The notes below the pieces were generated by a model that did not search any database, was not told where the DNA came from, and saw only the letters and a list, made by a program, of their open reading frames with translations. DNA of 64,000 bases from the NCBI GenBank assembly GCA_002189035.1, contig NEEC01000014.1, positions 1,242,501-1,306,500 on the forward strand, written 5' to 3'. Made by a program: the position numbers and the translations under genes. Shown piece by piece: positions 12,196-63,783 of this stretch (within the stretch, counting starts at the first letter, position 1; each line of letters starts with the position of its first letter). This stretch comes from Utricularia gibba (Eukaryota; Streptophyta; Magnoliopsida; Lamiales; Lentibulariaceae).

Positions 12196-13643
12196 ATGGA
12201 CTCCGGAGAAAGCCCAGAATTTCCATCGATTGCGGAGAAAGCATTGGAGTTCATTCCTCCCCCACCTCCTCCATTTCCCAAATATTCAACCCATCAATCC
12301 AGAAGCATCAGGGGATCCAGCAGATCATATGATTCTTCAATGGATCGTTTGTTTGATGAAGGGTATAGAGCCGATGTTTCCATTCTTACAGAAGGGGAGG
12401 AGTTTTGTATGCACACGCTCCTATTCTCGTATGTTCCTCAACGAAGCTGTTGTTTCATGAAAAATTTAAGCCTCCTGCTCATGATTGTGTCATTGCAGGG
12501 TAATGCTTCCCCCGTATTCAAGGCAATGCTGAAGAAATTGCATGGTGGGGGAGGAAGGAAGAAGCCACGGTCGATCCCCATAGTCGGAGTTCCAGCGGAG
12601 GCTGTCCGGATATTCATCCGGCTTTTGTATTCTTCAAGGTACAAAATCATCATCTCCTGATCTGCTAAATGAAGAAATGCCTTAACTGTTAGAGCCTGTG
12701 TTGTTCAGCTATGAAGAAGAAAAAATGAAGGAAAATGTTCTTCCATTGTTGGTGCTATCACATGCTTATGCTGTGCCTGAGCTAAAGCGATTCGCAGAAT
12801 ACTGGATTGAGAAGAGATATATCACTACGGAGAATGTTATTGACATCTTTCAGCTTGCTTTGCTGTGTGATGCTCCTCGCCTGGGCCTCGTTTGCCATCG
12901 GTTTGCCATGTCGAATTTCAAGGCTGTCTCGACCTCAGAAGGTTGGAGAGACATGAAACAGAGCCATCCTGTGCTAGAGAAAGAGATTCTGGATTCCATC
13001 AAGCTTGAGGAGGCTGTAAGTGCTTTCATCATTCACCAAACAAACACTGGCTCCCAGGGAGTAGCCAAGATCAACTGACATTGCTGTTGATCCTTACCAA
13101 CAGAGAAACAAGGAGAGGACAAGGAAGAGGGAGGAGAGGAAAGTGTACATGCAGCTCTACGATGCCATGGAAGCTCTTGTTCATATATGCAATGAGGGAT
13201 GTCGAACAATCCGCCCCTATGACAAGATTCCTCGGCACAATCAATCTCCCTGTGAATATGGAGCTTGCAAGGGGCTTGAGACGCTCATACGCCACTTCGC
13301 TCGATGCAATATGCGAGGAGTGCGAGGCCCCGGTGGGTGTCTACGCTGCAAGAGAATTTGGCAAATCCTGGAATTCCACTCTATGCTATGTGCAAATCCA
13401 GATTCCTGCAAGGTTCCCTTGTGCAGGTCATCTCATTGCTCTTCTTCATTCCCAGGAACAGATCAAGTGTCGTCATCTTTACCCACTTCTAAAACTTCCG
13501 CCTTCTTTGTCTCTTTCAGAAGCTACAGACAGGGAAGAGAGAAACGCAGCAAGAAGGATGAAATGCTGTGGAGAGTTTTGGTGAAGAAAACGGTGCGATC
13601 AAAGAGCATTACAGGCGCCCCATTCTTCTCATTGGGAGTCTAG
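12196..13643 (+). CDS. BTB/POZ-TAZ domain protein (BT family), one apparent -1 frameshift
   Basis: Five exons: 12196-12428, 12499-12638, 12709-13015, 13104-13426 and 13520-13643. They give about 375 residues if one base missing near 12499 is allowed for. The N-terminal half is a BTB/POZ domain (DEGYRADVSILTEGEEFCMH, ASPVFKAML, VPAEAVRIFIRLLYSS). It is followed by a BACK-like helical part (NVIDIFQLALLCDAPRLGL) and a C-terminal TAZ zinc finger with its Cys/His set (HICNEGCRTI, ACKGLETLIRHFARC, GGCLRCKRIWQILEFHSMLC). A calmodulin-binding-like end follows (KRSKKDEMLWRVLVKK). Arabidopsis BT1-BT5 are CUL3 adaptors and transcriptional scaffolds in gametophyte development and in nitrate, sugar and hormone responses. 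The first intron (12429-12498, 70 nt) has good borders, but its removal leaves the frame off by one (see findings). Confidence 0.9.
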
Positions 13644-14056
13644 TAGTATTCAAGAAATGCTCCATTTTGTATGAGTTTTTTTCCACGAGATTGCTTCTGT
13701 TGTAATGATTGATCAGATGAGAAAGAAAGCCGATATCTTGTCATTTAACAAGAACACACCCTCTTCCCAAATGCACGTTGAAAGAACAGGAAAAAGAAAC
13801 TTGTAATGCAAACGCTTGTGTTCATATATGTATTAACTGTGATGGGAAAAGAATGTAGACATCTGGAGGAAAAGCAACAGGTGTAGAGGAATCTCCAGGA
13901 CTAGATGATCAATACAAGCGATGCACAACTTCAAAAAAATGGAATATAAGCAGCTTCTGCTGCATCAAACACAAGCAAACATATACGGTTATGAGATGAA
14001 CAGGACAAAAAAAGAACTAACCCCATCTTCTTCACCTTCTTGTTCATGTATCTTAT
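13644..14056. other. Convergent 3' ends of BTB-TAZ and PMT genes
   Basis: The interval between two converging genes holds the two 3' UTRs. Nothing else is recognisable. Confidence 0.5.
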
Positions 14057-17000
14057 TCAGATGGCGTACGTAACGGTTTCTGTTTCTGTTGGTCGCCACG
14101 TCGTTTTCTGGGCACACAGCAATCCTTCCTTATCCTTGGAGTATGTCATAGTGATTGTCCACTGCATAGATTTGAATATGCTCTCCAGTTCGGTGATCAG
14201 CTCGGCGGAGTCACGAATGATGATGCTGCCTTCTGGTCTCAAAATCCGGTCAACTTCTGAAACAAGGGCCATGAAATTGCACCTGTTGCACAAAGACGTG
14301 ATAAGCGGAGTTGCAAAAAGGACTCTGGCCAGTGTTTTGGCATCCATGAAGCATTAGAGTTAGCTACACTTACTTCTTCTTGATCCTGGAGAATAGATGA
14401 TCAGCATGGAGCAGATCATAGGATCTCGGATATGTGCTGAAAGACTCGCACCAGTCATGATAAATTCCGAATAAACCTCGTTCGTAGATCACAGGAAGTG
14501 TATCTGGAGCATCTATGGATACAACATTCAAAACCCACAACTTCAAATCTTTCAGAGCGGCTGCCAATCTGCAAGAACAGAGCACTCGGTCAGGGTTACC
14601 TCTGTGCTGGATATCAAAAGCTTACAAAATGGGAGATTTCTAGACCAGTTTTTACACAGCTTACCCTCCATAGACAGCTCTCATGTCCATCACATTTCTC
14701 ACTGTAGACCAGTTTATTCCGAGTCCACTTTTATAAGAATTTTCAACGACACGCTTCCAGTGCTCGTAATCAGCAACGAAGTCTTCCGGAGCTGGTTTTC
14801 CATAAACACCAATATCAGAGCTTGATAACCAGTAGGGCGCCTTCTCCACCCTGGCAGGCCACATCTCTGGCCATTGAAATCCTCGTTCCGTTGCAGCAAC
14901 AGGTACCTTGTGCATGCATGCTTGTAGAGGCACATTCCTGCCATATCAAGATGGTAGCATTTAAACCATACGTATATAATGAAAATAGAAAATACTAATA
15001 ATCCAAGCCATGAGAGAAGCACTTACCATGCAGCACTTGGATCATCAGAATCCTGACATAGAGGGGGTTCATTTTTGGATCTTTGTTCATAGCACTCATT
15101 CGTGGTAGGCTTTTTATATATAGCAATTCCCACATTGTTGATTGTGTCCTTGGTTATTGAGATAACCTCCCAACACATTGCCTTGGTCAACTTCTTCATG
15201 GCTGTCAAAATTTTAGCAGTTTGAGTACAGCTTATACAGTTAAATAGGAGTTAATTAATGATTTTTCTTGCAAGAAAAACAGGAAGAAGCATACCTTGCC
15301 AAATCTCTACATCTTCTGGAAGTTTCTGATAAATTGGAGTAGCAGACCAAACAAAGAAACCACCCGGACGTAGTAAACGGTTCAGCTCCAACAGTAGCTT
15401 ACCACCTGCGAAATATCATGTTCATGTAGCCGAACCTCATGTACAACACAAAGGAAGTGAGGGGTGTTCGGGTGCTTTGAAAAAAATGAAATGAGTGTAC
15501 TACCTTCAATATGCCAAGGCACTCTGCAGCGTGCACAGTGGACGATATCAAACACCCTCCCAGGATAAGGAAGCCTGAGTGTGCCCATAACAGCGGATAT
15601 TGCAGGGATACCGCGTTCAAGGGCAAACTGAACTTGGGCCTCATGTTCATCTTTAGGAGCTAAAGACATTGCCAACACATCCCTGTCAAACAGAAAACCC
15701 CCAAAGCTAGCCACACCACAACCAACGTCCAATATGACACGGGAACGCTTCCCCCAGGCGACTTCAGAAACAGACTGTAGAAAAAAAAATCTAGACATGT
15801 TAACAATTTGGCAAACAACATTGCCCAAAAAATACTATAGAATGCTGGTAAAAAAATGAGGCAGTACTCTTAATCTGAAGTGCAAGAAAATACATATAAT
15901 AAGAATAAAAACACGCTATTTCATCACGACCAAGAATACATAAACATGAAACACAAATCAAGTTATGACAGTAGTCTGACCATACTAGAAGAAGAGATAT
16001 ATCTGGTATTACCTGTTGTATAAAGTCAATGTAATGCAAAGCACCATGCTTAAACTGGGTCCCACCACCAGGGAAAGTCAGGTATTCACCACTAACTTTA
16101 ACCCAATTTTGGTGACCTTTAACCTCAGCAAGCTTGGTATGAGGAACATTGCTGTACCATACCTGTGAAAGTAGTAGAATTCAGTTAAAACAGAATACAA
16201 AAACACCCAAATTTAATTTTGGTTCCTAAACTACCTTTTCCCGGCTTGTAGGCCATGGTATGGATCGCTGATATCCTTCAGGAAGAGGAACAAGGCACGT
16301 TGGAGGCTCTTCAGGACAGTGCCTTTCCCTGTGCTCATAGTGCTTAGTTGTTGGAAGATTTCGAATTGCCTCCAAATTATCAAGGCATGGGATGTAATCT
16401 GTCCCAGCAGTGGTATTGCAAACTTTCCATGTATAAATATTCTGGTTTTCAGATTCAGATGCCTGCTGGACTTCCTTTTCTTTTTTTGACTCAGTTGCCT
16501 GTGTCGGAAATGATCCCTTTTGTGTTGTGGGTTCATCTGAAAGCTCTGTCTGAGGCCCAGAAGGAAATACGTCATCTGACTTTACATCTTTCTCAGAACC
16601 CTGATCCGATTTGTCATCTTCACTGTTTTCTGTCTTCTCTTCTATCTGATCTTCTCCCTTTTCACCATCTCCATTCACCACCTGAGATTTCTCGTTGTCT
16701 TTGTCTTCCTCCCTACTTTCCGTCTCATCCTTTGAGACATCCTCTTTTTCTTCTTCATTTGTTTTTTTATCATCATCTGTATTCACCAAGTCCTTGTCCA
16801 CAGAAGTTTCTTCAGACGGGGTATCTTTACCTTCCTCGTTCAAGCTTACATTATTATCGCCTTTGGTAGCATCTTCAGGTAAATCACCAGGACTGTCCTC
16901 AAATTGCTTCTTGCTTTCTTCCTTGCTCACATCACTTGCACCCCCAGCATTTTCACTAGTAACAGGTGTGTTCACATCATCCTTGACCTCGCCCGGAGCT

Positions 17001-17143
17001 TTCAAATTTGGAACCGGGTTCACAGATGATGCTGACAGCAGCCACACCGCAAGTAGACAGACACCCACGAAAACTGACACTAGGATTGAAGAACATAAGT
17101 TGGATGATTTCCGGCCATCAACTCTTGAGTACTTTCCTGCCAT
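14057..17143 (-). CDS. Probable Golgi methyltransferase, PMT24/25/26 clade (DUF248)
   Basis: Eight exons on the minus strand (16235-17143, 16013-16162, 15504-15774, 15295-15405, 15027-15201, 14665-14937, 14374-14568, 14057-14282) encode 769 residues, almost the length of Arabidopsis PMT24. A short cytosolic tail and one signal anchor ([20 protein letters not shown]) are followed by a ~200-residue acidic Glu/Asp/Lys/Ser-rich stalk typical of this clade. The methyltransferase domain includes [20 protein letters not shown] (SAM motif I), [49 protein letters not shown] and [11 protein letters not shown]. The family is thought to methylate cell-wall pectin (QUA2/TSD2 relatives). A leader intron is likely: a donor on the minus strand lies near 17630 and an acceptor near 17187. 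Confidence 0.95.
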
Positions 17144-19175
17144 GATATCCTTAATATTTGATTAGCAGCTCGAGGTTCTTCTGGTACACCTACACAAAAA
17201 AGCAAAAATCATCTGAATCAAACATCAACATATATGTAACAACTATGAGATTCAGAATGAAATAAAAGCTCAATCTTCAAATAATGATAAAACCATTGAG
17301 TTAAAGGGCAACAGATGAGCAAAACAAGTTGATCCCATCAACAATCCACCAAATGCACTTAAGACAGCTACTAGCCAGAAGTTCGATCACTTTCTACGTT
17401 AAAACAAACATTCCTTCTTAACTACGACAATTGAACAGCTGAGATCTAAGGAATATCGCAACCAAGAAAGACACTACCATCATAACCAATAAACAAAAGT
17501 AACAAACGAGCAAGAAACATCCACACATACATTAAAAAGAAGAGTCACCACTAGATCTCTCCACACCCACTTCACGAACTGAAAATAACCACTCCCAAAA
17601 CCTCAACTTTCGCAAATCTTCCTCACCTTGGCAGATCTAAAGCACCCCCTCCCCAGCCCCAATCATCGGCTCATTTTCTGGGTATATTCCCAGTGTCGGT
17701 CGTACAAAGAGACAGCCGCACCCCTAATCCCAAGCCCTGTGGCCTATGCAAATGCGCGTCTGGAATTGAATATATATATATAATAGATTACACCCGGGAT
17801 CAGCTTGCTGGATTGACGGTGAGTAATAAAGGTGACAAAGACTCTACAGCTTCCAAACCCCAGGTAATTATATCCTTCTTACTGCAAATAAAAGAACCCC
17901 AAGTTGGGGGTAGAACGCCGTGAAGTTCCACCGCCACAGCGCCGCCGAGTAAATGAGGTAAAACAGAAGAATCAAGCAAGACCGAGAGAAGAAAACTAAC
18001 CAACCAACTTTTTTCCTAAAAATTTTATTCAAATAATTGATAACTAAAAATCACAGTTAAATTTCAAAATAATTAAAACCACATCAAATAATCTTTATAT
18101 TAAATAATGTAATGATAAAAATGGTGCAAAGTCAAATTTGACCGTTGGGATCAGTACATTTTTCGTACGTCACCACCCTATTCGACCGCTCAGCTCCAAC
18201 AACCTCCCTACTCCTTGGTCCAATATCCCATGGTTAGAGAGTATATGAAAAAAACTGAAAATCATACATATCTATGTTTTATACTTTTGGCCGTATCGGG
18301 TACGCATACTAGTACACTGCTATTATTAAAAAAAATAAATCAGTGTTTCTAAAAATTTTTGAAACTTGTTTTTATTTTTTAAAATTATTTTAGAAAAATA
18401 AAAATAAGAAATAAAAGTAAATAATTTCTTTTCTAAAAATAAATTTTGTAGTATAATTTTAAAAATATTTTTAATATAATTACGTTTACAATTAAAATTG
18501 TTTTGAAATAAAATTATTTTTATTTTTGAAAAATATAAATATGTTTTTAAAATTTTCTAAAACACTGTTTAAATTATTTATATTGTTCATTATTCCACCG
18601 ATTATCATCCATCTCTTGATTTTGCTTATTTATTACTATTGTATTGCTATTCTTTTTTAGTAATACTTTTTGGGTTATTATTACTTATCAACAATTTAAG
18701 TAAATTGAAAATACACTTCTAATTTCTAAATAAATTTATCTTAATAGTATATTTTTAAATTTATCATATCCATATTTGTATTCGTATTCATACAATGACA
18801 TACGCATATCCATGGTTTGTAGAAAAAAAATGATGACTCAATGTATAAATTTTTGTTTCAATATGTGAGATAAAATTGGCGGTAATCACTTTTCTAAATG
18901 ATCTGCCTAAAAGCAAAGAAAAAAGATTTATATCTTGTGAATTAGTTAAATTTAATAAACTTGTTTTTCAATATATTTACAATAATGTTTAAAAAGGAAT
19001 TGTGAACAAGGGTGAGGCTGAACATGTACACTATGGAGAAGGATAGTATTGCTGTAGATTAATGGTGTACGGATGCAACTTCCTTCATTTGATTTTCCAG
19101 AGCAATATGCAATTTCTGTATGCAGTCCAGATCATGGAAAGTATCATCAGCAATGAACATATTTGTAGCATTTTT
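17144..19175. other. PMT leader/promoter and AT-rich spacer with an inverted-repeat element
   Basis: 17144-18000 is likely the leader intron, leader exon and promoter of the PMT gene, with a short TA microsatellite at 17770-17782. 18000-19020 is AT-rich and carries the foldback element annotated separately. 19020-19175 is the 3' UTR of the PPR gene. No further gene is seen. Confidence 0.55.
18341..18567. mobile_element. Putative MITE, copy 1 (CAGTG-ended foldback)
   Basis: A 227-bp AT-rich element starts with CAGTGTTTCTAAAAATTTTT. Its other end, read in reverse complement, is CAGTGTTTTAGAAAATTTTA. The first 8 bases are identical and about 20 of 25 match. There is no coding capacity. CAGTG ends are common in hAT-type non-autonomous elements. 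No clear target-site duplication is seen. A related copy lies at about 61426-61629. Confidence 0.55.
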
Positions 19176-20753
19176 CTACACAATTTGACTGAAGCCTGCT
19201 TCTTTCTCCATATTCATTTCCAGTAGGCGCCTTCTTATCTGGTTGGCCTCTTCCCATTTTCCCAGAGCTTTGTACATATTGGATAGTGTGACATATCTTC
19301 CTGGGTTCCCAGGGTCAAGATCAAGCAGAATTTTTGCAGCTTTTTCAGCAATTTCCAAGTTTCCATGGACACAGCATGAACCAAAAAGTGCACCCCACAT
19401 TCCCTTATGGTTTGAGCCACATTCAGCTCTTTCAATCACTTCCAAAGCTTCTTGAAGCCGGTTTTTGCGCCCAAGAAAGTCAACCACAATAGCGTAATGA
19501 GCTGCTCTAGGGGCCAGACTGAACTCATTCTTCATCATATCAAGATACTTCAGGCCTCCACAGTCTAAGCCAGAGTGGCGGCAAGCTGATAACACTCCGA
19601 TAAAAGTTACCTCATCAGGTCGAACCTGTGCTTGTAGCATCTTCTGAAAGACAGCTAAAGATTGCTCACCATCCCCATTTTGAGCAAAACCAACTATTAT
19701 AGAATTCCAAGTTATGATGTCTTTCCTCTGGAGCTTTTTAAATAACTTCAGTGAGGATAGCATGTCTCCGCATTTGCTGTACATATCAATAAGGGCATTA
19801 ACAACAGATGCATTATCAAATACACTATTATCTGTGATTCTAATTATGTGACAATGGATTTGCTTCCCCAAGGTGATGTAAGCTAAATCAGCACAAGCGC
19901 TTAATATACTTACATAAGTAGCTTCATTTGCAGTAACACCTTCTTCTTGCATTTTAACAAAAGCAGGCAAAGCTCTCTCCCCTGCTTTGTTTTGTACGAA
20001 ACCAGCTATCAATGTAGTCCAGGAAACCACATTTTTAAAGGGAATTTGATCAAAAACCCGGCATGCATCTTCTATCTTCGACGCATTAATATATGCAACC
20101 AACATCGAATTCCATGATACAACATCTTTATCATCAGTATGACTAAAAATATGACAAGCTGTAGCATCGTATCCACATTTTCCATAAGCATCGACAAAAG
20201 CGTTGCAGACTACCACATTGAAATCCAAGCCTAAAACAATAGCAACCCCGTGTATCTGCCGCACCAACTCCAAAAAACCCATGTTTGCACAAGCGTTGGC
20301 CAGACCAACAACCGTGTACTCATCCATCAACACACCATCTTTACCACCCTCATTCATTTTCCTAAACTCGTTCAAAGCCTCCCTATAAAGCGCATTTCGA
20401 CACAAGGCAGAAATCATGGTATTATAGCTAACAAAATTTGGTTCAGGGATTTCATCGAACAGGCGGCGAGCATGTCCTAACCGGCCCGCTTCACAGTACC
20501 CATTCACCATGGTATTCCAAGAATAAGTATTCTTCCACTTAATAACATCAAAGACTTTTTCTGCACAAGAAATTGAAGCGCATTTGGAGTACATTTCTAT
20601 CAATCTGTTGGCTAAAAATGTGTCAAGAATCAAGGCAGTTTTGATGAGGAAGGAGTGGATAACTCTCCCTAGCTTGACATTCCTTGTCTTGATAGAGTCA
20701 CAGAATGCATTCGCTGCCACCGCCGTTACCTCATCGCCCGGCAGCCACCTCAT
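19176..20753 (-). CDS. Pentatricopeptide repeat protein, PLS class, E subgroup
   Basis: A single exon encodes 525 residues from the ATG at 20753. About ten P, L and S repeats run through the protein, with typical lines such as NTYSWNTMVNGYCEAGRLGH, KNVVSWTTLIAGFVQNKAGE, VVNALIDMYSKCGDMLSSLK and DIITWNSIIVGFAQNGDGEQ. The C-terminus has an E motif (MWGALFGSCCVHGNLEIAEK, DLDPGNPGRYVTLSNMYKAL) and stops at GFSQIV, without a DYW deaminase domain. Such proteins bind organellar transcripts and usually take part in C-to-U editing together with a DYW partner. The organelle cannot be told from this sequence because the N-terminus is short and not clearly a targeting peptide. No orthologue is named with confidence. 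Confidence 0.93.
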   Translation of the reverse strand: MRWLPGDEVTAVAANAFCDSIKTRNVKLGRVIHSFLIKTALILDTFLANRLIEMYSKCASISCAEKVFDVIKWKNTYSWNTMVNGYCEAGRLGHARRLFDEIPEPNFVSYNTMISALCRNALYREALNEFRKMNEGGKDGVLMDEYTVVGLANACANMGFLELVRQIHGVAIVLGLDFNVVVCNAFVDAYGKCGYDATACHIFSHTDDKDVVSWNSMLVAYINASKIEDACRVFDQIPFKNVVSWTTLIAGFVQNKAGERALPAFVKMQEEGVTANEATYVSILSACADLAYITLGKQIHCHIIRITDNSVFDNASVVNALIDMYSKCGDMLSSLKLFKKLQRKDIITWNSIIVGFAQNGDGEQSLAVFQKMLQAQVRPDEVTFIGVLSACRHSGLDCGGLKYLDMMKNEFSLAPRAAHYAIVVDFLGRKNRLQEALEVIERAECGSNHKGMWGALFGSCCVHGNLEIAEKAAKILLDLDPGNPGRYVTLSNMYKALGKWEEANQIRRRLLEMNMEKEAGFSQIV

Positions 20754-26116: not shown

Positions 26117-26336
26117 AATCGCCTCTTGTGCCGGAGTTCAATCTGCGGAGAATCTGTTGGGAAACTGCTTTCGCTTTCCGGCGAGTGTCGTAAAGCTTCT
26201 TTCCTGTGGGTGCGGAATTTTTTCTTTTGGCTCTTTCCATATTTCCTCTTTTTATATAAAAGGCATCGTATCTCATCTCATCCCAGATTCAAATATTCTC
26301 AATAAAAAAAAAAAAAAACTATATGCATTTCTTCAG
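26117..26336. other. UKL leader/promoter abutting the At3g27210-like 3' end
   Basis: A short same-strand gap holds the UKL leader and promoter and the upstream gene's 3' UTR. A poly-A run of about 14 lies near 26306-26319. Confidence 0.5.
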
Positions 26337-39714: not shown

Positions 39715-43374
<3,660 letters not shown>

Positions 43375-45308: not shown

Positions 45309-46885
45309 ATGATGATAAAAAATATTCTTAATAAAATCCCTCGGAAGCAAGCCAAGGCGGCAGAGAATCATGATGGAGCATCATTTTCTAAGGCAGAAGC
45401 TACTTTGCGAAGCAGCTCTGTTTCAGCTTCCCAGTCCAGCAGTTGGAGTGGTGGTGCTCCTAATGGGACGTATGGTGTAAATGGGGTCATGCAACAGCCT
45501 CTTGATGCCAAGGCAGATGGGATCCCACGGCCTATGCCATATCAGGCCCTTCCAAGTTTCAATGATGTACCGAATTCCGAGAAGCAAAACTTATTTCTCA
45601 GAAAGTTGAGCATGTGTTGTGTGGTATTTGATTTCACTGATCCCTCTAAGAATTCCAAAGAGAAAGACATTAAGCGGCAGACATTGTGGAAGTGGTTGAC
45701 TATGTTGCCTCCCCAAATGGTAAATTCAGTGAGATTGAGATGCAAGAGGTCATAAGAATGGTATCTGTAAATTTGTTCAGGGCATTGATCACGCAGCCCC
45801 GTGAGAATAAAGTCTTGCAAGGTTTTGATATGGAAGAAGAGGAGCCACTGATAGATCCCTCCTGGCCCCATCTGCATATTGTCTATGAATGCCTTCTAAA
45901 GTTTGTGATTTCTCCTGAGACAGATGCAAAGTTGGCAAAGCGCTACATTGATCATTCCTTCATTATCAAGTTCTTGGATCTTTTTGATTCAGAAGACCCT
46001 AGAGAAAGGGAGTATTTAAAAACTATCCTACACCGGATATATGGAAAGTTCATGGTTCATCGTCCATTCATCAGAAAAGCGGTGAACAATATTTTCTACC
46101 GGTTTATTTTCGAAACTGAAAAACACAGTGGGATTGCAGAGCTTCTGGAAATCTTGGGAAGCATTATAAATGGATTTGCTCTTCCCTTGAAGGAAGAGCA
46201 CAAGCTTTTTCTTGTGCGTGCCCTCATCCCCCTGCACAAACCCAAGTGCCTGTCATTGTACCATCAGCAGCTAACTTATTGCATCACCCAATTTGTTGAG
46301 AAAGACTGCAAGCTTGCTGATACTGTCATAAGGGGGTTACTGAAGTATTGGCCGGTTACAAGCAGTACCAAGGAAGTTATGTTCATAGGTGAGATTGAGG
46401 AAGTGCTTGAATCTACTCAGCTGCCTGAGTTCCAGCGCTGTATGGTTCCTTTATTTCGTCAGATTTCTAGATGTCTCCGCAGTTCACATTTTCAGGTTTC
46501 ATTAGCATTTAGCTACTTTATGGTTTTCCTCAATCAGCACCTCTGTAGATACTCATGTTAGTTCATATTACAGGTGGCTGAGAGGGCTCTTCTTTTATGG
46601 AACAATGATCATGTTGTGAGCCTCATCAAACAAAACCGTAAAGCTATACTGCCAATCATCTTCCATTCATTAGAGAAAAATGCTGGAAGTCATTGGAATC
46701 AAGCAGTCCAAAGTTTAACACTTAATGTTCGTAAGATCTTCTCTGATGCTGATCCACAGCTGTTTGGTGACTGCTTGCATAAATTCCAACAAGATGAGGC
46801 ACATGAACATGAGACCAGGACGAAGCGTGAGGCAACGTGGAGACGCCTGGAGGAAATGGCCACTGTTACGGCCTCGAATTTCTGA
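45309..46885 (+). CDS. PP2A regulatory subunit B' (B56), one apparent -1 frameshift
   Basis: Two exons (45309-46495, 46574-46885) give about 499 residues once one base missing near 45686 is allowed for. The ATG pair at 45309 gives [16 protein letters not shown], like the gamma/zeta-type plant B' start. A Ser-rich linker follows. The B56 HEAT-like domain then reads [133 protein letters not shown] and [12 protein letters not shown]. It targets the PP2A holoenzyme to substrates in brassinosteroid, defence and metabolic signalling. The two halves are in different frames in this sequence, but codon conservation is intact on both sides. Confidence 0.92.
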
Positions 46886-47674: not shown

Positions 47675-48953
47675 TTAAGCTCTTCTAGCCACCCGTGTAG
47701 CTCTATGATCAGAGGCCCCCCTTTCTCGGAAAGCTTCCAAGAATTCTTCCCTTTGCAGTCTGAACGCCAATGCAGCGTCCTCATCTTGATCAGGTAACTC
47801 TGTTCTTACTCTACTCCTCACAGCTGCAGTAGTTTGCCTTCTGATGCGACGATGGAGTCTTCTCTCTTCACCACTGCTTTCCTGTCCTGGACTACTTAAG
47901 CTTGCAATGAATCTGCTGCGTGTAACTCTTGGGGAGATGGAGCTTTTTCATTTGCGTCGGAGGCCAGAGTGCTTGCTTTTCTAGCTTCAACTTCTTGAGG
48001 AAACAGCAACTGAATGGTGTTCCATAGAACAGTGTTCACCGTGCAGTATCTCCCATTGCTAACAAGTTCAATGGAAAGTCAGATTCTCAGCTATAATAAG
48101 CATGGGTGCACGCATCTGTCTTGTATACCTGATAAGATTTCTGCACTTGGGGCATTTTTTCCCACATTTATCAGCAGCAGAGTGCAGGCATTTTCTGCAG
48201 AAACTGGAGAAGAATCACAGGAGCAAAACTGATTCACAAGCATGCTTGAGATCTTCCAAACTGTATAGCTTCAACTAAACTTCTACCTGTGCCCACATGG
48301 AGTCGTGCTCGGCTCGTAACAAATCTCCAAACAAATCTGCCAAACAATACAGCATCAGACACTCTGCAGTTGACATCTGGGATAAAAGAAGATGAAAGGT
48401 TTGGAAATGCAGTTCCTACAGCACAAGAGAGCTCCTCCCTCAGCCTATCTATGCATGGAATTGCAGGAGCATCAACCCTTTTGTTGAGATTCACTTCAAC
48501 GTCCCCTCCCTTCCCCGGCAAATTCTTCGTTTCTCCTATGGAACCGGTCTTCTCATTTCTATCCTCAAGCTCTGTTATACCATGAGATCAGATGAGATAC
48601 ATAATCATGGCGACAACAGGCATCATGCTTACTGTACCTTGCTTCGGTTCCGGTTTATCTTCATCTAGATGGATAACTGATACGGATATGGGGACCGAGC
48701 TTCTTCCCTGAGCCCTACGCTTCCTGCAATGAGACGGCCTAGAAATCTCAATCGCCGAATCCGTTTCATAGTATCAGAGACAAATCAATTCACCAACCGA
48801 ATGAAGAACGATTGTAATCGAACCTTCTCGAATCTGAGGGCGGAGTTCTCTGGCCATGCGTATCGGATCTCTTCTTGCTCTTTAGCAATCGTTCGGGGTA
48901 TCCTCGACGACGAACGCCGCAACCATAAGCGCCTCTTCGTCCCACCCCGCCAT
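47675..48953 (-). CDS. C3HC4 RING-finger protein (probable E3 ubiquitin ligase), two apparent -1 frameshifts
   Basis: Six exons on the minus strand: 48824-48953, 48638-48723, 48420-48571, 48287-48336, 48129-48203 and 47675-48058. They encode about 292 residues after allowing for one missing base near 48895 and one near 47931. The start MAGWDEEALMVAAFVVEDTP is conserved-looking. A basic nuclear-type stretch (RKRRAQGRSSVPIS) follows. The RING finger is spread over three small exons and reads CAICLEICYEPSTTPCGHSF, CRKCLHSAADKCGKKCPKCR. After it comes NGRYCTVNTVLWNTIQLLFP and a basic tail with EDAALAFRLQREEFLEAF. The RING plus the following segment resembles plant RING proteins of unknown substrate. 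An in-frame upstream ATG at 49076 would add 41 residues. Confidence 0.82.
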
Positions 48954-52237: not shown

Positions 52238-53391
52238 ATGGCGGAATGCGTCTTGGAGCAGCTGAAATCTTATCCCACATGGCTTCTCCTCCTCGCCATC
52301 CTTGGTTCCTTCTCCATCCTTAAGCATTCTCTCACTCTTCTCAAATGGATTTACATCACTTTCCTCCGCCCTGGGAAAAATCTCAAAAAATACGGATCTT
52401 GGGCGGTGGTCACCGGCCCTACAGATGGCATCGGAAAGGGCTTCGCCTTTCAGCTGGCGAAAAAGGGTCTCAATTTGGTTCTAGTCGGCGGAGCCCGGAA
52501 AAGCTAAAGGATGTTTCCGATTCGATTAAGTCCAAAAACGGATCGACCCAGATCAAGACCGTGGTGGTAGATTTTTCCGGCGATTTGGACGACGGCGTTT
52601 CGAGAATCAAGGAATCAATTGATGGGCTAGATGTTGGGGTTTTGATTAACAACGTCGGGATGTCGTATCCTTATGCCAGATTCCTGCATGAGGTGGACGA
52701 TAAGCTGCTCAACGATCTAATCAAGATTAACATTGAGGGCACAACCAAAGTTACGGCGGCGGTTTTACCTGGAATGGTGAACAGGAAAAAGGGGGCAATC
52801 GTGAATATCGGGTCTGGCGCAGCAACAATTCTCCCCTCAGATCCCCTTTATGCCGTCTACGCTGCAACCAAAGCGTGAGTAACATTGGGTCATCTTTTTA
52901 TCGTGCTCCGGTGCTTATCTCCAGGAAAAAAAAAAGTATTTCTTTGTTGCTAGCAATCAGATTCGGATTTGCTGTTGTGCTTCAGGTACTTGGATCAGTT
53001 CTCCAGATGCCTCTACGTTGAGTACAAGAAGAGTGGGATTGATGTGCAGTGCCAGGTTCCTTCTACAATAGAACTGAAGCTCTTGAAAGAGAGGGCTTTT
53101 GAGGTCTAACACTTGGTTGATTTGCACCATGTGCAGGTTCCATTATATGTTGCAACGAAGATGGCTTCGATCAGACGCTCCTCCTTGCTGGTTCCATCGC
53201 CCGATGGCTATGCGCGCGCAGCCCTGCGATGGATTGGATACGAGCCTCGCTGCACGCCTTACTGGCCGCATTCGATTGTGTGGGTGCTGTTCAATTCCCT
53301 GCCAGCATCAGCCGTCGATGCTTGGCGCCTGAGCTACAATCTGGCAATAAGGAAAAAGGGGCAACTCAAGGATGCCAGGAAGAAGGAATGA
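52238..53391 (+). CDS. KCR1: Very-long-chain 3-oxoacyl-CoA reductase, one apparent -1 frameshift
   Basis: Three exons (52238-52874, 52986-53055, 53137-53391) give about 320 residues once one base missing near 52489 is allowed for; Arabidopsis KCR1 has 318. A membrane anchor near residues 13-40 ([20 protein letters not shown]) precedes the short-chain dehydrogenase fold. That fold shows the cofactor motif [36 protein letters not shown], the catalytic Ser in [12 protein letters not shown], and the YxxxK pair in [30 protein letters not shown]-like and VPLYVATKM blocks and a lysine-rich ER-retrieval end (RKKE) follow. The enzyme reduces 3-oxoacyl-CoA in the ER fatty-acid elongase that supplies wax, sphingolipid and seed-oil precursors. 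The frame break lies between LVLVG and [10 protein letters not shown]. Confidence 0.94.
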
Positions 53392-54477: not shown

Positions 54478-54689
54478 GTTGTTGCACGACGCCGGATTCC
54501 TGGCCCCCGGATCACCGGATATTTTTTCTCGTTCGCCCGTTGCCATCCACAAGTTTGAATATATATAATTCGTACAAGAGAAAAATGCTCAAAAAAAACA
54601 ATTTTTCTGTGCCAACATTTTCAGGAAAGAAACAGACAAAAAGAAGCACACAAACTTGAAGACAGTCAAGTTGCAATTGTTGCATTTTC
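54478..54689. other. Short gap between the small conserved gene and RH47 3' end
   Basis: The gap holds the likely promoter of the small gene and the 3' UTR of RH47, on the same strand. Confidence 0.45.
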
Positions 54690-56315
54690 TTAATCTTTCA
54701 CTAGAACCAACTTTCCCTCCACAAACTCGCAACATTGGACGGCTACCCCAAGCTGTTTCTGCATCTTCTTCACTACAAAAACTTCTGGTTCTTCGCATAT
54801 GGTGAGAACTGTACCCTTGCGGCCAAGGCGTCCTGTGCGGCCGGCTCGGTGGGCGTAGTGAGTTGAATCAGTAGGAAGCTCGAGGTTAACCACAAGATCA
54901 CATTCTGCAATATCCAGCCCTCTGGCAGAAAGTTCATTGGTCACTAACACCCTTATATCGCCATTCCTGAACTTCTTCAGGATGGTCGACCTTGCGAGCT
55001 TGTTAAGATCGCCATGCAGCTCTGCAGCATTCAGTCCACGAGCTTCCAACTTGAAGACAGCATCTTTTAACTGTCTGTTGTGGTTCATGAATGCTATTAC
55101 ACACTTTGCATCAAGCGCATGTATGCATCTTCTAAGTGTGTCCACCTTGTGCTGTATTCTTGTCAAGGTGTAGTAGTGTGTGATAGAAGGCGGTAGGCTC
55201 TGAACTGGAGGATTCTGCGTCCCCATGTTTGCAGCGACATCAGAGCTGGTTGATGTTTCTGGCTGGTTCACCGGAGAGGGAACCCGGATGGAGTCAAGTG
55301 GAGTAATGTTGTTCGCTTGAATGAGAAGAGGATCACGACCCCAACTTCTTGCAGCTCGCATCACGGAAAATGGAACTGTTGCAGAAACCATTATCATCTG
55401 ACGCTGAGCTCGATTAGCCTGAGCACCATTGACCAGACCACCTGCACTAGATCTTCGACCAACATGCTCCAGTATACGATGCATATCCTCCCTAAAATTG
55501 AAAGCCAAAAGTTCATCCACCTCATCCAGCACAAGAAACTGACATCCATGTGTGTGAAGCTTCCCAGCTCTGTTAATCTCTGCAATCCGTCCAGGAGTTC
55601 CAACAACAATAACAGGCTTATTCTTCTTGATTGCATCTTCCTGCCTCGACTTGTTTGCACCTCCAACAAGTTGTTGCACCATTCTCTTATGTGTAGGTCC
55701 AAGTAGCTTCTCAACTTCCCTTACAATCTGCATCCCAAGCTCTCTAGACGGTGCTACTACCACAGCTTGTATATCCGTTTTGACACTAGCTTCATTATTC
55801 CCCTTAAAAGGACCAATCTTGGAGAGTATGGGGAGTAGGTAAGCCAGTGTTTTCCCAGAACCTGTATACGACTGAATAACAACATCATGATCCTTGAGGA
55901 CCACGGGAATGGCAGCAGCCTGAACATCAGTTGGAGTATTAAAACCTTCGGACTCCAACCTCTCAACCAACAATGGAGGAATATTAAGCTCAGAAAAAGA
56001 TTTCGCAGCAAATGGTGCTAATCCCAGTGCATCAACTTTGTCCTCACCTATTACTTTGGCTTCCCTTCTTCTCGTTTCCCCAGTTGACGAAATCCTCGGT
56101 TTCAACTTGCATTTTTCAACGCCACGAATAAGCTGGACGTCAGCCTCCGTGCCAAGACTTGCAAGAGAAAGCGGACCATTCTGATAGCACACCTTACGGA
56201 AGAACCGCGTTCTGCTGCAATGTGGAGCTAGAAGCGAAACTCCATAGCGTTTCCCCAACGATACACTACAACGAAGAAAGCACCTGCTTGAAGCCAAATT
56301 AGACATAGCATCCAA
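54690..56315 (-). CDS. RH47: DEAD-box RNA helicase RH47-like, organellar
   Basis: A single exon encodes 541 residues from the ATG at 56315. A ~100-residue basic leader, likely an organelle-targeting peptide, precedes the helicase core. Motifs in order: Q-motif region SFSELNIPPLLVERLESEGF, I YTGSGKT, Ia PSRELG, Ib TPGRI, II DEVD (VLDEVDELLAFNFREDMH), III SAT, IV IAFMNHNRQL, V LSARGLDI, VI HRAGRTGRLG. Motif II reads DEVD rather than DEAD, as I recall for this clade. Arabidopsis RH47 (ISE1) is mitochondrial and its loss alters plasmodesmata and embryo development. The intronless structure and the DEVDELL-NFRED block support this assignment over plastid RH58 and RH39. Confidence 0.88.
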   Translation of the reverse strand: MDAMSNLASSRCFLRCSVSLGKRYGVSLLAPHCSRTRFFRKVCYQNGPLSLASLGTEADVQLIRGVEKCKLKPRISSTGETRRREAKVIGEDKVDALGLAPFAAKSFSELNIPPLLVERLESEGFNTPTDVQAAAIPVVLKDHDVVIQSYTGSGKTLAYLLPILSKIGPFKGNNEASVKTDIQAVVVAPSRELGMQIVREVEKLLGPTHKRMVQQLVGGANKSRQEDAIKKNKPVIVVGTPGRIAEINRAGKLHTHGCQFLVLDEVDELLAFNFREDMHRILEHVGRRSSAGGLVNGAQANRAQRQMIMVSATVPFSVMRAARSWGRDPLLIQANNITPLDSIRVPSPVNQPETSTSSDVAANMGTQNPPVQSLPPSITHYYTLTRIQHKVDTLRRCIHALDAKCVIAFMNHNRQLKDAVFKLEARGLNAAELHGDLNKLARSTILKKFRNGDIRVLVTNELSARGLDIAECDLVVNLELPTDSTHYAHRAGRTGRLGRKGTVLTICEEPEVFVVKKMQKQLGVAVQCCEFVEGKLVLVKD

Positions 56316-59254
56316 TTCCTCCTAACTGGGCTCTTAATCTCCGCACTGGCGATATGTTTCTACACGGTCGGCCTTCTATCTGCTCCCCACACTCCGTCAA
56401 CACAATCCACTCACACCGAGTAACATGATACGAACACTGAAATAGGGATACTACTCCAGTATAATGCAGATAACAGCATCACACTACGACCTTGCAGCCA
56501 ACAGAAAAGAAGATAACTTCCAAGGAAAACACCTTTACACGAAAACCCAACCGCTATAGATTTTCAAAGACGGAGTAAAGCGATTAGGGCAACGGAATCG
56601 AATCTTACCGGAGGAAGCAGAGAGTCCCTGGGTTCTTCGGCGGAGTCATATAATATCCATGAATTTTTTCCTTTTCACTTATAATCACCATTTTTTTAAA
56701 CAAAATAATTAAAAATACAACGTCATTATATAAACATTTTCAAACGCAAATTCAACAAATTAGGTAATTTTTAAAATATTTTTTGAAAATAGATCTATAT
56801 AGATTTAATACAAAAATATTTAAAAAGCCCATTAAATGAGCCGTAGGCCATCTTTATCAATTAACAAACTGGTTGTTCTCCTCAGCGTCATGGGGTCTCT
56901 GCAGAGGAACTACATTTACAGCTGCAACTTATTCCTCAGAAAGGAAGCCGAACTACGCTTCCCGAGTGGCAAGCAATACCTTCCTAGAATCCTCGACCGT
57001 CTGAGAAGGGATCCTATCACTCCTCACTGCCTGATCTTGAAGAAAAACCAGGGGCAGTGAAGAGGGTGCTTTCTGCTGCAGAAGTCTCTTGTGGGGGCAT
57101 CTTCGTGCCTCTAGAGGAGACATTGGATTGCGTCTTCTGGCACTGGGATGAGCCCCTGGTTCGGAGCGTCGGCTATTTTGGGAACATTGGTGATGTGCAG
57201 GTAGGGGACGAGGATGGAAGGAGGTACGGTGGGTGGTTTTGGATGAGTAGGGAGGGGGAGCATGGGTTCTGTCGTGCTTGCAGATGATGTCAAGGCTGGT
57301 GACTGCATCGGGCTTCGTTGGAATCCTGCATGCAAAAGCTTTAGTTAAGAGTCTTTTCTGTCGAACAAAAGTAGTTGCAGAAAGAAGGATGAAGTATCAC
57401 CATTTTTGTTTACAACTATAAAGGCATCACAGATCCTTAATCCAAAATCTAACACAACTCCAACCGTCATATCGTGTCTTTGTTCATCCGCACCATTATC
57501 TGACTTTGTTATGCTTCCACTATCTGAGCAACAACAGACATCCATATTAGCACAGTTCACGTAAACCAAAGAACATCACACGAACTCCACCAAATTGGGA
57601 GAAACAGAGGTAGCTTCAGATTATAACACATAAAAGGTTTTAGTCGAGGGATCGATGTTGACATTCAAATGTGTGTTATCCCCTACTCAAGTAAAATGAG
57701 AGCAAGCACATCGGGTAGGAAGCACTCTGCCATCAGAAGGGAGGGATATGTAGACAGATAATTTATCTCACTGTTCCATGCATTACAGGGAACTCAAAGC
57801 CCTTGCGCAGTTTCCCAAACATCATATGGCAGACAACAACATCAAGCAGGACATCCATAACAAAACTCAAAGGACATAAGTAACACGAATCCTGCCAAAC
57901 ACCCTCAAGATGCATCGAAGTTGGAAATCATATAAGAAAATGCTTCTTCTTTCACAACAAATCATTAAAAAGCAAAACATTGTAATTTATAGTAACAAAT
58001 ATAAAGCGCTTGAAATCAGAACCACCACATAAAGACGGCTTCTTTACATTCCACATAAGTGTCAAATAAAATGGTTCGGTGTCAACGCAGGGCAGCAGTC
58101 TAAAAGTGGTACAACCTTCAAGCTAACAGTTAAATCTTGGCGCAAGCAGTTTACTACAAGGTTCCAGAGTCAACCATTTACTCAAAGGAATCACGCCCAA
58201 GACAACAACGCACGTACTACAGCTTCATTATCACGCATAGATCAGAGCTGAAACGGCCTTTATCGACCCCGTGGGACTCCAACCCACACAGGGATTTGAT
58301 ATTTGAGGAACTACCATTTGCAGTCACCCAACTCAACGGATTGAAAATCCAGTTTCAAGACATCCACTAAACTGAGAAACTGTAATAGGACACGGCATTT
58401 TGTTTGAATGAAAACGATTCCCAAACGCATAAATCCGTCACTCCCCCTCCACAATTAGTACATTAAACCGAGAATCGGCATCGGGAAATGAAACCCCTCA
58501 TCGTCGCCGGCTCCACAATTTCCAGAAATGATGCAAAACTACCAGAAACAAACTAAACGCGCATAGGGCTCCTTTTACAGTATTGACGGCGTCGGAATCT
58601 TTAGGGCACCCGGCCCAAACCGGCACTCAGCCCATTTACAATTATTAAACATTCCATTTTTTTAATATACATAAACAATATATTATTTTACGAAATTAAA
58701 TCACACACAACACTACCTTACTCTAAAACCCAATGCAGACTTTTAATTTCATATAAATGAAATTAAACCAAGCCCTTATTAATTTTTAACAACACAACTT
58801 GAACTCCTGCTTAAGTCAAAATCTTTCGATTCGAGTACCCAACCCTAATTCCGACCCTCCAACAACCCCTTAAGTCAAAATCTTAAGGATATGTGGTACA
58901 TTGTCTTGGAAAAAAATCAATTTTGAAGTGATTCAAATTCGACCTCAAAGTCTTTTTATAAAAATTATTGAATTGAATTCGATAAATCATGGGTATGAGT
59001 TGAATCCATAGTACGTACTCAATGATTGTGATGCATCTAGTTTAGGGTTGGATTGGGAGACGTAAAGCATGCTTAGGACACCGTGGGCTTGTTATATGCA
59101 GAAAGTGATTAGTGGATGACGTGCGGCCCTAATTAAGGTGCTTAACAGACATAAGATGGGGATTAGGAAGTGGTTAGGTCAAAAGCACATCTTTTTTGAC
59201 GTGAAAATTAATGATTTAACACAAGTGATTCCTTATTTGTATTACGGGGTTAGG

Positions 59255-59263
59255 TCTATAAAG
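59255..59263 (+). promoter_or_regulatory. TATA box of the MYB gene
   Basis: TCTATAAAG lies about 108 bases upstream of the MYB ATG at 59367. A pyrimidine-rich leader with a CT/TCTC microsatellite follows (about 59307-59346), a common arrangement in plant promoters. Confidence 0.6.
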
Positions 59264-59306
59264 AGTTCCCACACTCTGCATTATCTTCTTCTTCTTCATC
59301 CCACCT

Positions 59307-59346
59307 TTTTCCCCCTTTCTCTCTCCCTCTCTGTCTCTCTCTCTGT
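59307..59346. repeat. CT-rich microsatellite in the MYB leader
   Basis: An imperfect (CT)n / TCTC tract lies directly in the presumed 5' UTR between the TATA box and the start codon. Confidence 0.7.
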
Positions 59347-59366
59347 AGCTAGGATTCTTGGTGGCC

Positions 59367-61193
59367 ATGGAAAGCAAATCGACAAACAAATCTGGGGACG
59401 TGGAGGTGCGGAAGGGGCCGTGGACGATGGAGGAAGATATGATTCTGATGAACTACATCGCGCACCATGGGGAGGGAGTTTGGAACAACCTCGCTCGAGC
59501 AGCAGGTAACTTTGTTCTTCCTGTGTCGTGATCTGTGTTTTTGTTTTCTTGTGTGTGGAAAACCCTAATCTAAGAAAACCCTAGTGGATGGACTTGAAAG
59601 AAAAACCCTAAACGCAGAGGTGTAAGTGTTTGGTAGGGCTTAAGCGCACCGGGAAGAGCTGCAGATTGCGATGGCTGAACTACCTCCGGCCGGATGTTCG
59701 CCGGGGAAACATCACGCCGGAGGAGCAGCATTTGATCATGGAGCTCCATGCCAAGTGGGGAAACAGGTAACACTTATTACAGTTTTTTGCTCGAATATGG
59801 TTCGAAATGAGACGTACATGCGTAATACCAACCCTTCACAAAAAGGGACAAGCTCCAAGAATAGCAAGATAGCAGTAAAGCAAGAAAAAAACCATCATAT
59901 GCACAACACATGAATATTAACATTAGCCTACCTCTTGCTGTCTCCCCCAAAATAACCTGGTTTTCATCTTCCCTGTAAAACAGTAAATTCTCGCTCTGTA
60001 ACTCACCCTAAAGCTCTGATCTTTTGGTCTGAGCAAGAAGGGCGGTTTCGGAATACACAAAAAGTCAAGGGTATCACTAGGAAAATGGAGGAGTATCCAA
60101 AGAAATGGGGTTGAGGGGATAGAGTTTTTCTATATCGGGAAGAACCCCTTTGCAAAGAGTCACATGCACAACTCTTCTTTAACTCGAAACAGAAGCCTCC
60201 AGTTGCCTCTTTGGTATTATGAACAAGACGTCTGCCTTACTACTTGTCTCTTCGTCTTTCGTAATCACCTACTTAACCTTAATTAATCACTAATAGGATC
60301 ACAAACATCTTCACCAAAAAGAAAAAAGAGAAACAAGTACCTTTTCCATTTCCCCTCAGATAAAAGAAACCCCAAGTCTGCAGTTTTCTTTCCCCATATA
60401 CAGACACCAGTAAGTACCTGGAAACAGAGTGATTTCCATGGGCAGCTTCGAAAACACTGCACTAATAGCCTTTACCATGAGTCTTAGATGGAAAAAGGGG
60501 CAGGATTAACCTGAGTTGGAAACCGTACTAAACCTGCAAAACCAGCAAAGGATGTGGGAAACTCAATTTTTTTTTTCAGAGAAAGTGGGAAACTGAAAAC
60601 TGGGCATCGGAGAATCGAACTTTGTTGCAGAGAAAAGGAGTAGGGGATTAGATTTTGGAGAACCTGAGTTCCGTATGTGTGTGTTATATATGTGTGTGCA
60701 GATGCCATCGCTGTGGATTTCCAGCCACACCACGTGGTGCTTTCATCCACATTGAAAACGTGCTGAAATGACTTCAATGCAAATACTTTTTCATTTATTT
60801 GTTAGATATAGAGCCCCTGCCTATTATAAATTCCCACCCAGTTGCACTGTGAAGCTGTTGTTCTTGAATTTCTTCGCAAGGTGGTCGAAGATCGCGAAGC
60901 ACCTCCCGGGGAGAACCGACAACGAGATAAAGAACTTCTGGAGGACCCGCATCCAGAAGCACATGAAGCAGGCGGAGCTCACCGGTGCCGCTCTGAATAA
61001 CCAGGCCAGCACCAGCACCCTCTCCGGCGGCGCCCCCGCCGAACTCCCCATCCTGGAGACGTACTCCCCGACGTCCTACACCGGGAGCGTCGGGGCGGCG
61101 TTCCCGGAGGGCCAGTTCCCCATCGACTCCTCGGAGGAGCAGCTCTGGAGCATGGACGATTTCTGGTCCATGAACCTCCTCAACGGGGACTGA
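59367..61193 (+). CDS. R2R3-MYB transcription factor, subgroup 19 (MYB21/24/57-like)
   Basis: Three exons (59367-59505, 59637-59766, 60881-61193) encode 193 residues. R2 begins [20 protein letters not shown] and ends [21 protein letters not shown]3 begins [20 protein letters not shown] and continues [32 protein letters not shown]. The intron positions are the canonical ones for R2R3 genes; the second intron is long (1,114 bp). The C-terminus [16 protein letters not shown] is the subgroup-19 activation motif. In Arabidopsis, MYB21, MYB24 and MYB57 are jasmonate-responsive factors that drive stamen filament growth, petal growth and floral volatile or flavonol output, and are held by JAZ proteins. 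The short leader with TATA box fits a tissue-regulated gene. Orthology to one of the three is not resolved. Confidence 0.94.
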
Positions 61194-63049
61194 AAGTACG
61201 GAGAAATGGAGCAAAAGTGTGTTGATTTGGGGGTGAGGAATTTGACTGCCTATGTCCAATGTTGTTTACCTTATCTATTATCTCCTACATACATGAATTT
61301 ACATAATATATTGGACAATAATGTGCATATGGAATGATAAAGTGTGTTTGATCATATACTACTTACTAGGTTTTTCCCCTTTTCTAAATGACTCTTTTTT
61401 AATCATCCTAAAAATAATTTTAAATGGTATTCTGAAAAATTTTTAAAATCTATTTTTACTTTTCAAAAGTAAAAATAGTTTTGTTTTAGAATACTTTTAA
61501 TCATAAAAGTAATTCTATTAAAAACATTTTTAAAATTATAATTATAAAGTAAAGTTATTTTTGGAAAATGAATGAGTTGATTACTATTATTTTTTATTTC
61601 TACGATTTTAAAAATTTTTCATAACACTGTTTTAATCATGCAATTTGGATCGAACCCATGATGTTAAAACATTGATTTGATCATGTCTTTTTGTTGTGTG
61701 GTTGGAGTTTTCTAGCGTGATGTTAGAATTAGGATGCGTGGAACCACCACATGGATGGATGCCAAGAATAATCAAGAGGAAGAAGACGGCACGTGGAAGG
61801 GTGTGGCATGCGAGTATTGGCAAATTCCGCCATTCCCTTTCTGGGTAAACTTCTACTTGTGTACATGAGAGATTGGGGGCCGTGCCTAACTCCGAGCCAC
61901 CCCGTGCCTAACTCCGGACCACTTGCCCATTCTCCCATTCCTCCATACGGAGTATAGTCCTCTTCCTTGTAACCCTAGGTCGGGACTCCAAACGCGTATC
62001 CGACTCTATTTGCTTTCATTTTTTTCAAAAACTATTTTTAGAGAAATGATTCTAATAAAACATAATTTATGTTTCCATAGTTTTTTTAAATTTTTTTTTT
62101 ATTTTTTTGTGTTATCAGAGTAGCCTTAAGCAAATAGTATTATATCGAAAAATTAAAATTAAATGATAAAGTATATAATAAATTATAAATTATTGATTAT
62201 TGATTGAACTTAATCTTTTCTAATATGAATTATGTATTTAAACTTCATATGTAATTTATCGATCCATATAATCTGTAATTTTAACGTTATCTTATTAAAC
62301 TATTGGAGTTGAGCAAGGGATGTGTAAGCAACGTTATTGAATGGATAAAAAAATAATGAAAAAGGTTAGAATGGTGGAAGAATGGGGCCCACATGTGTGT
62401 TATAGCGCACATGTTTGTTGTGGGCTAGAAAAGGGCACGTGAAAGTAACCTAAATCACATGGCCAGGTCGGGAACAAGAATCGATTGATTCCATGAATAT
62501 TTTTGCCCATTTCACGGATGCATCCGAGTGGATCCACTATTGAGCCTGTGTTGCTTTTCGCTGTCGGGTTGAGCTGGGGATGGGGAAGATGATCCATCAT
62601 CTCCATTTCACTTTCAGGATCTGACCAACTGCCTCCGTCACTGTTTCAATACAACCATGGAAAAGCTATACGCCTTTTCAGCCTGCTACAAGAAATTCAA
62701 TGGTGCGTTTTAAGCTCATGTCACCCCAATTGGCTGGCCTTCCTGGATGGGTTTGGGCAGACCAGGCCCAATTTTGAGAGCCCAGGAGGATCTGGAACGA
62801 TCTCATCGAAACGACGTCGTATCGTTGACCTACTGCTTCCTCCACGTTGCCCTGCCCTATTCTTCTCTATTGGGTTTGAGCGAGATGTCTGAGCCAAAAG
62901 CAGGAGAAACCAGGCGGGAACCCGAGGATCGCGCATCCGGAGCAGCGGCTTCTACAATTCTGTAGTGCGTTTCAACAGGTTTTTTTTTTTTAATTAGGTG
63001 AGGAGCTCTCTCACGATCCCTTCTCTGTGTACATCCGAAGAACTGTGCA
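61194..63049. other. AT-rich spacer between MYB and SNL6-like genes
   Basis: MYB 3' UTR to about 61370, then AT-rich sequence with the second inverted-repeat element. A direct duplication of about 20 bp lies at 61880-61922. 62040-62340 is AT-rich. 62700-63049 is GC-richer and is the 3' flank of the SNL6-like gene. No gene is supported. Confidence 0.5.
61426..61629. mobile_element. Putative MITE, copy 2
   Basis: A ~204-bp AT-rich element has an 18-base perfect inverted repeat (61433-61450 against 61604-61621). Its right end in reverse complement reads CAGTGTTATGAAAAATTTTT, closely like the ends of the element at 18341-18567. The left terminus has decayed. TTTTAA occurs at both flanks and may be the target duplication. 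It has no coding capacity. Confidence 0.5.
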
Positions 63050-63783
63050 TCATTGTTCACTTTGGTTGCACCGTTCGGTTCTGACCATGAGCTGAACGAG
63101 CCTCGAGTTCGATAACCGAAATCGACGCTGTCTGCTAGAAGATGCGGCGGCGCCGGTCACGCGTTCCATGTCCATGCCGGTCTCCTGGGCCAGTCGACGA
63201 ATCCCGTCCTCGCTCTCGACAACCCTGTCGAAGCAAATGTACCTGCCGGATGCAGATTTCTTCATTCCCTCGAACACGGAAACCTGAGCTTTTGCTAAAC
63301 GGTCGATGTCCACTGTGGCGAGTAGTCCGCGCGGTACATCTCCCCGACTCCCTTGAGGTACGCGATGGTGGCCGTGGGATTCTTGAGGCAGAAATCCCTG
63401 CCGGTGATCAGCCCGGGGCATATCGCCGCTAGCTTCAGTCCAGTTCGCTTGGCGATCTCGAATGCGGCTTTCTCGGCTCGTAGCTTCCCCAGAGCATACC
63501 ACAGCTGCTCACGCATTGAGGACTTTCAACAAACATGTCCCAGGCGTCACAAGGGAAGGAAGCATTCGAATCTGCCTACCTTTTTGTCGATGCAGAGAGA
63601 CTCGTCGCTCCAGCACTTGTGATCAATGAGGCCCGGGGCGTCTCCAAGAGGGCTGTCCTCGTCGCCTTGCCAGATGCACGTCACCAGAGAAGACGTGAGG
63701 ACACAATTCCTAACAGAAGATGACATCCCACACGCCTTCATTACGTTTTCACATGCCTTCACTTCAACATCCACCATGCTTTT
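63050..63783 (-). CDS. Cinnamoyl-CoA reductase-like SNL6 (extended SDR), partial, one apparent -1 frameshift
   Basis: Two 3' exons are visible on the minus strand (63580-63783 and 63050-63504); earlier exons lie beyond the right edge. The visible exons read SMVDVEVKACENVMKACGMS, SSVRNCVLTSSLVTCIWQGD, INHxCWSDESLC-type HKCWSDESLCIDKK, then LWYALGKLRAEKAAFEIAKR, TGLKLAAICPGLITGRDF, NPTATIAYLKGVGEMYR, GLLATVDIDRLAKAQVSVFE and ASGRYICFDRVVESEDGIRR. The sequence matches the CCR/DFR-like SNL6 clade of NADP-dependent reductases. The usual YxxxK appears as WYALGK, so Tyr and Lys are kept. The Rossmann glycine motif must lie off the window. A base missing near 63327 separates GEMYRA from LLATVDIDR. 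The biological substrate is unknown; rice SNL6 affects lignin and defence. Confidence 0.87.

What the first reader, a model, noticed from the sequence alone, without database searches (positions are those of the whole stretch)
12499..63328. Recurrent one-base losses in short homopolymers across six conserved genes
Seven sites (near 12499, 39843, 45686, 47931, 48895, 52489, 63327) each lack exactly one base. Family conservation resumes immediately in the next frame, and every site is explained by shortening a run of 2-5 identical bases by one. All are deletions, none an insertion or nonsense change, and codon conservation on both sides shows no decay. This is the signature of residual long-read or homopolymer error, not of six independent pseudogenes. 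An automatic annotation would split or truncate these genes and report false pseudogenes.
Basis: partly seen in the sequence, partly recalled or inferred. Interest (0 to 1): 0.72.

Follow-up and report, generated by a model that had tools for sequence, protein, structure and literature searches.

The report
Homopolymer deletion errors in plant assembly
Seven apparent gene breaks in this stretch of a small plant genome are almost certainly sequencing-assembly errors (one letter lost from short runs, mostly of G or C), and the same error is scattered through the whole assembly, so many listed 'broken' genes are probably intact in the living plant.

Summary
Seven one-base losses break six conserved plant genes (BTB-TAZ, HAUS6, PP2A B'/B56, a RING protein hit twice, a KCR-type reductase, a CCR-like reductase). 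Six coordinates are exact. The first is misplaced: 12499 is an ordinary splice acceptor, and the break lies at about 12403-12408.

The pattern is assembly-wide. In intron-poor families (GRAS, HSP70, UDPGT), 22 of 25 close frame breaks are of the minus-one class, about one per 3-4 kb of coding DNA, as in the window (7 in about 25 kb). Every break whose lost base could be assigned lies in a G or C run (18 of 18; G/C runs are 46% of coding runs). One 2.9-kb locus assembled twice differs by two single G losses and one substitution, and one loss splits a GRAS gene. Homeologs on C409 are intact at the two sites checked, and the broken B56 copy shows full purifying selection (dN/dS 0.06).

Size and N50 fit the PacBio HGAP assembly of Utricularia gibba; the literature reports residual HGAP/Quiver indels mainly in G or C homopolymers. 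No reads were available for direct proof.

The parts
12403..12408 (+). Site 1: one-base loss in TTTTG of exon 1 of a BTB/POZ-TAZ gene (exon 1 ends at 12428; intron 12429-12498; exon 2 from 12499). The base lost is ambiguous (T or G).
   Evidence: joined frame gives BTB 2-106 at 44.0 bits against 33-106 at 31.8 bits unjoined
39840..39843 (+). Site 2: one G lost from a G run in exon 1 of HAUS6
   Evidence: homeolog C409:1622150-1622365 intact, run one G longer
45684..45688 (+). Site 3: one G lost (ATTGTGG; the homeolog has ATTGGTGG) in the PP2A B' (B56) gene
   Evidence: Pfam B56 continuous when joined
47931..47934 (-). Site 4: one-base loss at a GGGG (CCCC on the coding strand) run in the 3' part of a RING-finger gene (the adjoining A run is not excluded)
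48895..48898 (-). Site 5: one-base loss at a GGGG (CCCC on the coding strand) run in exon 1 of the same RING-finger gene
52487..52490 (+). Site 6: one C or G lost (GTCGGCGGAGC) in a very-long-chain 3-oxoacyl-CoA reductase (KCR-type SDR) gene
   Evidence: a related gene at C375:3071700-3072060 has no break here
63327..63328 (-). Site 7: one-base loss, most simply a G (coding strand), in a cinnamoyl-CoA-reductase-like gene
12429..12498 (+). Ordinary 70-base GT..AG intron; its acceptor was mistaken for site 1

Best explanation
The seven breaks are consensus errors of a long-read-only assembly, in which the polisher dropped one base from a short run, mostly G or C. The genes are intact in the plant. 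The same error occurs through the whole assembly at roughly one per 3-4 kb of coding DNA in the families sampled. Shown here: the breaks, their one-base class, the G/C-run bias, the genome-wide occurrence, a discrepancy of the same kind between two assembled copies of one locus, and intact constraint of the B56 copy. Inferred: that the reads carry the missing base, and that the source is the PacBio HGAP/Quiver assembly of Utricularia gibba.
For: (1) Each of the seven sites needs exactly one extra base and conservation resumes at once. (2) GRAS, HSP70 and UDPGT genes in the same genome show 25 close frame breaks, 22 of the minus-one class (p about 8e-5 against equal classes, treating breaks as independent); one of the three exceptions is two single G losses about 30 bases apart. 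(3) Base-level inspection: all 18 assignable losses are in G or C runs, background 46% of runs (p about 1e-6). (4) The same 2.9-kb locus on C412 and on the 38-kb contig C316 is 99.9% identical; C316 has two single-G losses and one substitution, and one loss splits a 615-aa GRAS frame. (5) B56: window against homeolog dN/dS 0.058, low on both sides of the break; 6 against 7 branch-specific amino-acid changes; no second-position changes on the window branch. (6) 100.09 Mb, N50 about 3.4 Mb and a 6.82-Mb contig match the U. gibba HGAP assembly. (7) A P6-C4/HGAP/Quiver assembly left 205 indels, nearly all in G or C homopolymers (PMC4832174).
Against: No reads or RNA data could be examined. The C316/C412 differences could be allelic. 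One HSP70 break is present in both copies of another duplicated stretch (C304 and C241), as a real frameshift would be, though a context-dependent error would also repeat. Site 1 is most simply a T loss. Species and assembly method are inferred from assembly statistics.
Confidence: 0.94

Rival explanations
1. Real, recent pseudogenes: after whole-genome duplication one copy of each gene is being lost (fractionation), and the intact homeologs on C409 carry the function.
For: A homeologous block exists on C409:about 1.600-1.625 Mb, with HAUS6 and B56 copies intact at these sites.
Against: Every break is a one-base loss with no other decay seen. B56 evolves at the same constrained rate as its intact homeolog. 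No close second copy was found for the BTB-TAZ and RING genes, and only distant relatives (39% or less) for the CCR-like gene. The same breaks affect GRAS and HSP70 genes genome-wide at a rate that would disable a large share of genes.
Confidence: 0.03
2. A real mutational process in this plant line: single-base loss in G/C runs, for example from a repair defect.
For: Same direction and same context at many unlinked loci.
Against: Repair defects would be expected to hit the longer and commoner A/T runs and to give insertions too. So many simultaneous losses in conserved genes are hard to reconcile with a viable plant.
Confidence: 0.02
3. Translational frameshifting or unusual introns restore the frame, so that the breaks are real but harmless.
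For: None beyond the conserved downstream frames.
Against: No shared slippery site was evident among the sites (not tested systematically); sites 2-7 have no room for an intron at the break; homeologs or related genes encode the same stretch without a break.
Confidence: 0.01

Closest known systems
Residual indels of PacBio HGAP/Quiver assemblies in G or C homopolymers (Streptomyces albus SM254, PMC4832174)
   Same: One-base indels concentrated in G or C runs after Quiver polishing; they break reading frames.
   Different: Known there from Illumina polishing; here inferred from conservation, and in a plant genome.
Quiver frameshifts at a guanine homopolymer of Xanthomonas tal genes (PMC4853030)
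   Same: Frameshifts at G runs caused by the consensus step; most vanished on re-polishing with better-matched data.
   Different: There one nine-base run; here many shorter runs at unlinked loci.
Post-duplication gene fractionation in Utricularia
   Same: Duplicated blocks with one broken copy each.
   Different: No decay beyond one base; genes without a close copy are also hit.

Membership tests
Long-read homopolymer consensus error | Single-base losses within or beside homopolymer runs | tested here: met
   Seven window sites and about a dozen GRAS/P450 sites
Long-read homopolymer consensus error | Context bias typical of the platform (G/C runs for PacBio Quiver) | tested here: met
   18 of 18 assignable losses; background 46%; literature PMC4832174
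Long-read homopolymer consensus error | Spread over the assembly and not restricted to a few redundant genes | tested here: met
   GRAS, HSP70, UDPGT searches
Long-read homopolymer consensus error | Separately assembled copies of one locus disagree at such runs | tested here: met
   C412 against C316; allelic difference not excluded; the C304/C241 pair shares one break
Long-read homopolymer consensus error | Accurate reads carry the extra base | not testable with these tools
   No reads are held
Pseudogene | Relaxed selection or further disabling changes | tested here: not met
   B56 dN/dS 0.058, equal branch rates; no other lesions seen in the broken genes. Selection tested for B56 only.
Pseudogene | Functional redundancy (intact second copy) | tested here: inconclusive
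   Intact at the site for HAUS6 and B56; no close copy found for BTB-TAZ, RING or CCR-like

The most novel reading that the evidence does not exclude
The sequenced plant line really carries a genome-wide wave of very recent single-base losses in G/C runs, a mutator-like state tolerated through duplicated genes or clonal growth.
Probability: 0.02. Interest if true: 0.8.

Novelty: not a real feature. Interest (0 to 1): 0.15.

Why it matters
Gene-loss and gene-family claims based on this assembly will count false pseudogenes, especially in GC-rich intron-poor families such as GRAS, unless it is re-polished with accurate reads. Biologically the genes themselves are ordinary.

Tried and rejected
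An ab initio coding model with frameshift and intron states fused neighbouring genes and was too weak, so I did not use its counts. I first thought frameshifts were rarer elsewhere, because the B56 and P450 lists looked clean; those loci favour intact genes, and the near-complete GRAS and HSP70 lists corrected this. I suspected a shared biological cause for six GRAS breaks at one profile position: DNA showed one ordinary short intron (C4) and otherwise single-base losses in C or G runs. One candidate break (L030) could not be confirmed and was left out. A ceiling on G/C run length (none of 8 or more in 315 kb) is suggestive but was not used, for lack of a reference.

Full report
What was checked. 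The window is C98:1242501-1306500 of a 100.09-Mb, 516-contig plant genome, in the middle of a 3.15-Mb contig, so the breaks are not a contig-end effect. Frame translations around the seven sites show the frame changes. Sites 2-7 are at the printed positions. Site 1 is not: 12499 is the first base of exon 2 after a 70-base GT..AG intron, and the frame change is in exon 1 at 12403-12408. Joining the frames there gives a BTB domain over profile positions 2-106 (44.0 bits), against 33-106 (31.8 bits) when read straight through. Sites 4 and 5 are both in one minus-strand RING-finger gene, so there are seven sites in six genes.

Homology at the sites. B56 is matched at profile 1-51 in one frame and 47-325 in the next, and is continuous at 467.7 bits when joined. 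The reductase at 52.2-53.4 kb behaves the same way. The CCR-like gene matches solved cinnamoyl-CoA reductases across the break. HAUS6 (named from memory of the family) has an intact copy on C409 that covers the break, 97% identical in protein to the joined query. DNA alignment to the C409 homeologs shows one G fewer in the window at sites 2 and 3.

Is the window special? No. In the GRAS family, 16 close frame breaks occur in 48 kb of matches, 13 of them of the minus-one class; in HSP70, 7 in 28 kb, all minus-one; in UDPGT, 2 of 2. The window has 7 in about 25 kb of conserved coding DNA (a hand-curated estimate). Of 25 breaks 22 are minus-one (p about 8e-5 against equal classes), and one of the other three is two separate single-G losses. 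The C304 and C241 HSP70 breaks are one locus assembled twice, so strictly there are 24 independent loci.

Context. Where the lost base can be assigned, it is in a G or C run in 18 of 18 cases: four in the window (sites 2, 3, 5, 6), ten in GRAS, two in P450 and two in the C316/C412 pair. G/C runs are 46% of coding runs of two or more, giving p about 1e-6. The remaining sites are ambiguous; site 1 is most simply a T loss.

Same locus, two assemblies. C412:852900-855800 and C316:30527-33427 are 99.9% identical. The small contig lacks one G in a run of five and one G in a run of four, and has one substitution; the second loss splits a 615-aa GRAS frame into pieces of 229 and 412 aa. An allelic origin is not excluded. 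Another duplicated pair (C304 and C241) shares one HSP70 break, as either a systematic error or a real change would.

Selection. Window B56 against its C409 homeolog: dS 0.494, dN 0.029, dN/dS 0.058; left of the break 0.02, right 0.06. Branch-specific amino-acid changes are 6 (window) and 7 (homeolog), and the window branch has no second-codon-position change. The 'broken' copy has been under full constraint. This was tested for B56 only.

Identity of the genome. Total size, contig N50 of about 3.4 Mb (from contig lengths seen) and a 6.82-Mb contig agree with the Utricularia gibba PacBio HGAP assembly (88x, N50 3.4 Mb, PMC5793159; Unitig_8 of 6.8 Mb, PMC8333044). This is an inference from assembly statistics. 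The original genome paper was not held.

Known error type. A P6-C4 HGAP assembly polished with Quiver to QV above 50 still had 205 indels, nearly all in G or C homopolymers (PMC4832174). Quiver frameshifts at a G run in Xanthomonas largely disappeared on re-polishing (PMC4853030).

Verdict. The feature is a known kind of artefact spread over the assembly. Direct proof needs reads.

Noticed in passing
window 39.7-56.4 kb and C409:about 1.600-1.625 Mb (minus strand): Homeologous duplicate block: HAUS6, B56, the SDHB region and further segments in the same order, about 73-85% DNA identity; B56 dS about 0.5.
   Followed up: partly
C316 (38 kb) against C412:about 0.85 Mb; C241 against C304:about 2.236 Mb; C376 against C413:about 5.406 Mb; C5 against C413:16 kb: Small contigs that repeat parts of large ones almost exactly: redundant or allelic contigs that could serve as an internal error gauge. 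Only the first pair was read at base level; the others rest on equal match scores.
   Followed up: partly
GRAS genes at C375:1928019, C142:1759661, C1:4158406, C2:1407997, C244:1855140: Five GRAS genes break at nearly the same profile position, in or near the stretch for Gly-Gly-Pro-Pro, which is encoded by C/G runs; a hot spot of the error.
   Followed up: yes
C304:2236266 and C241:17791: An HSP70 frame break present in both copies of a duplicated stretch; either a repeated context error or a real change.
   Followed up: no
window, C98 and other sampled stretches (315 kb): No G or C run of 8 or more, while A/T runs reach 23; may reflect collapse of long G/C runs, but no reference for comparison.
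   Followed up: no
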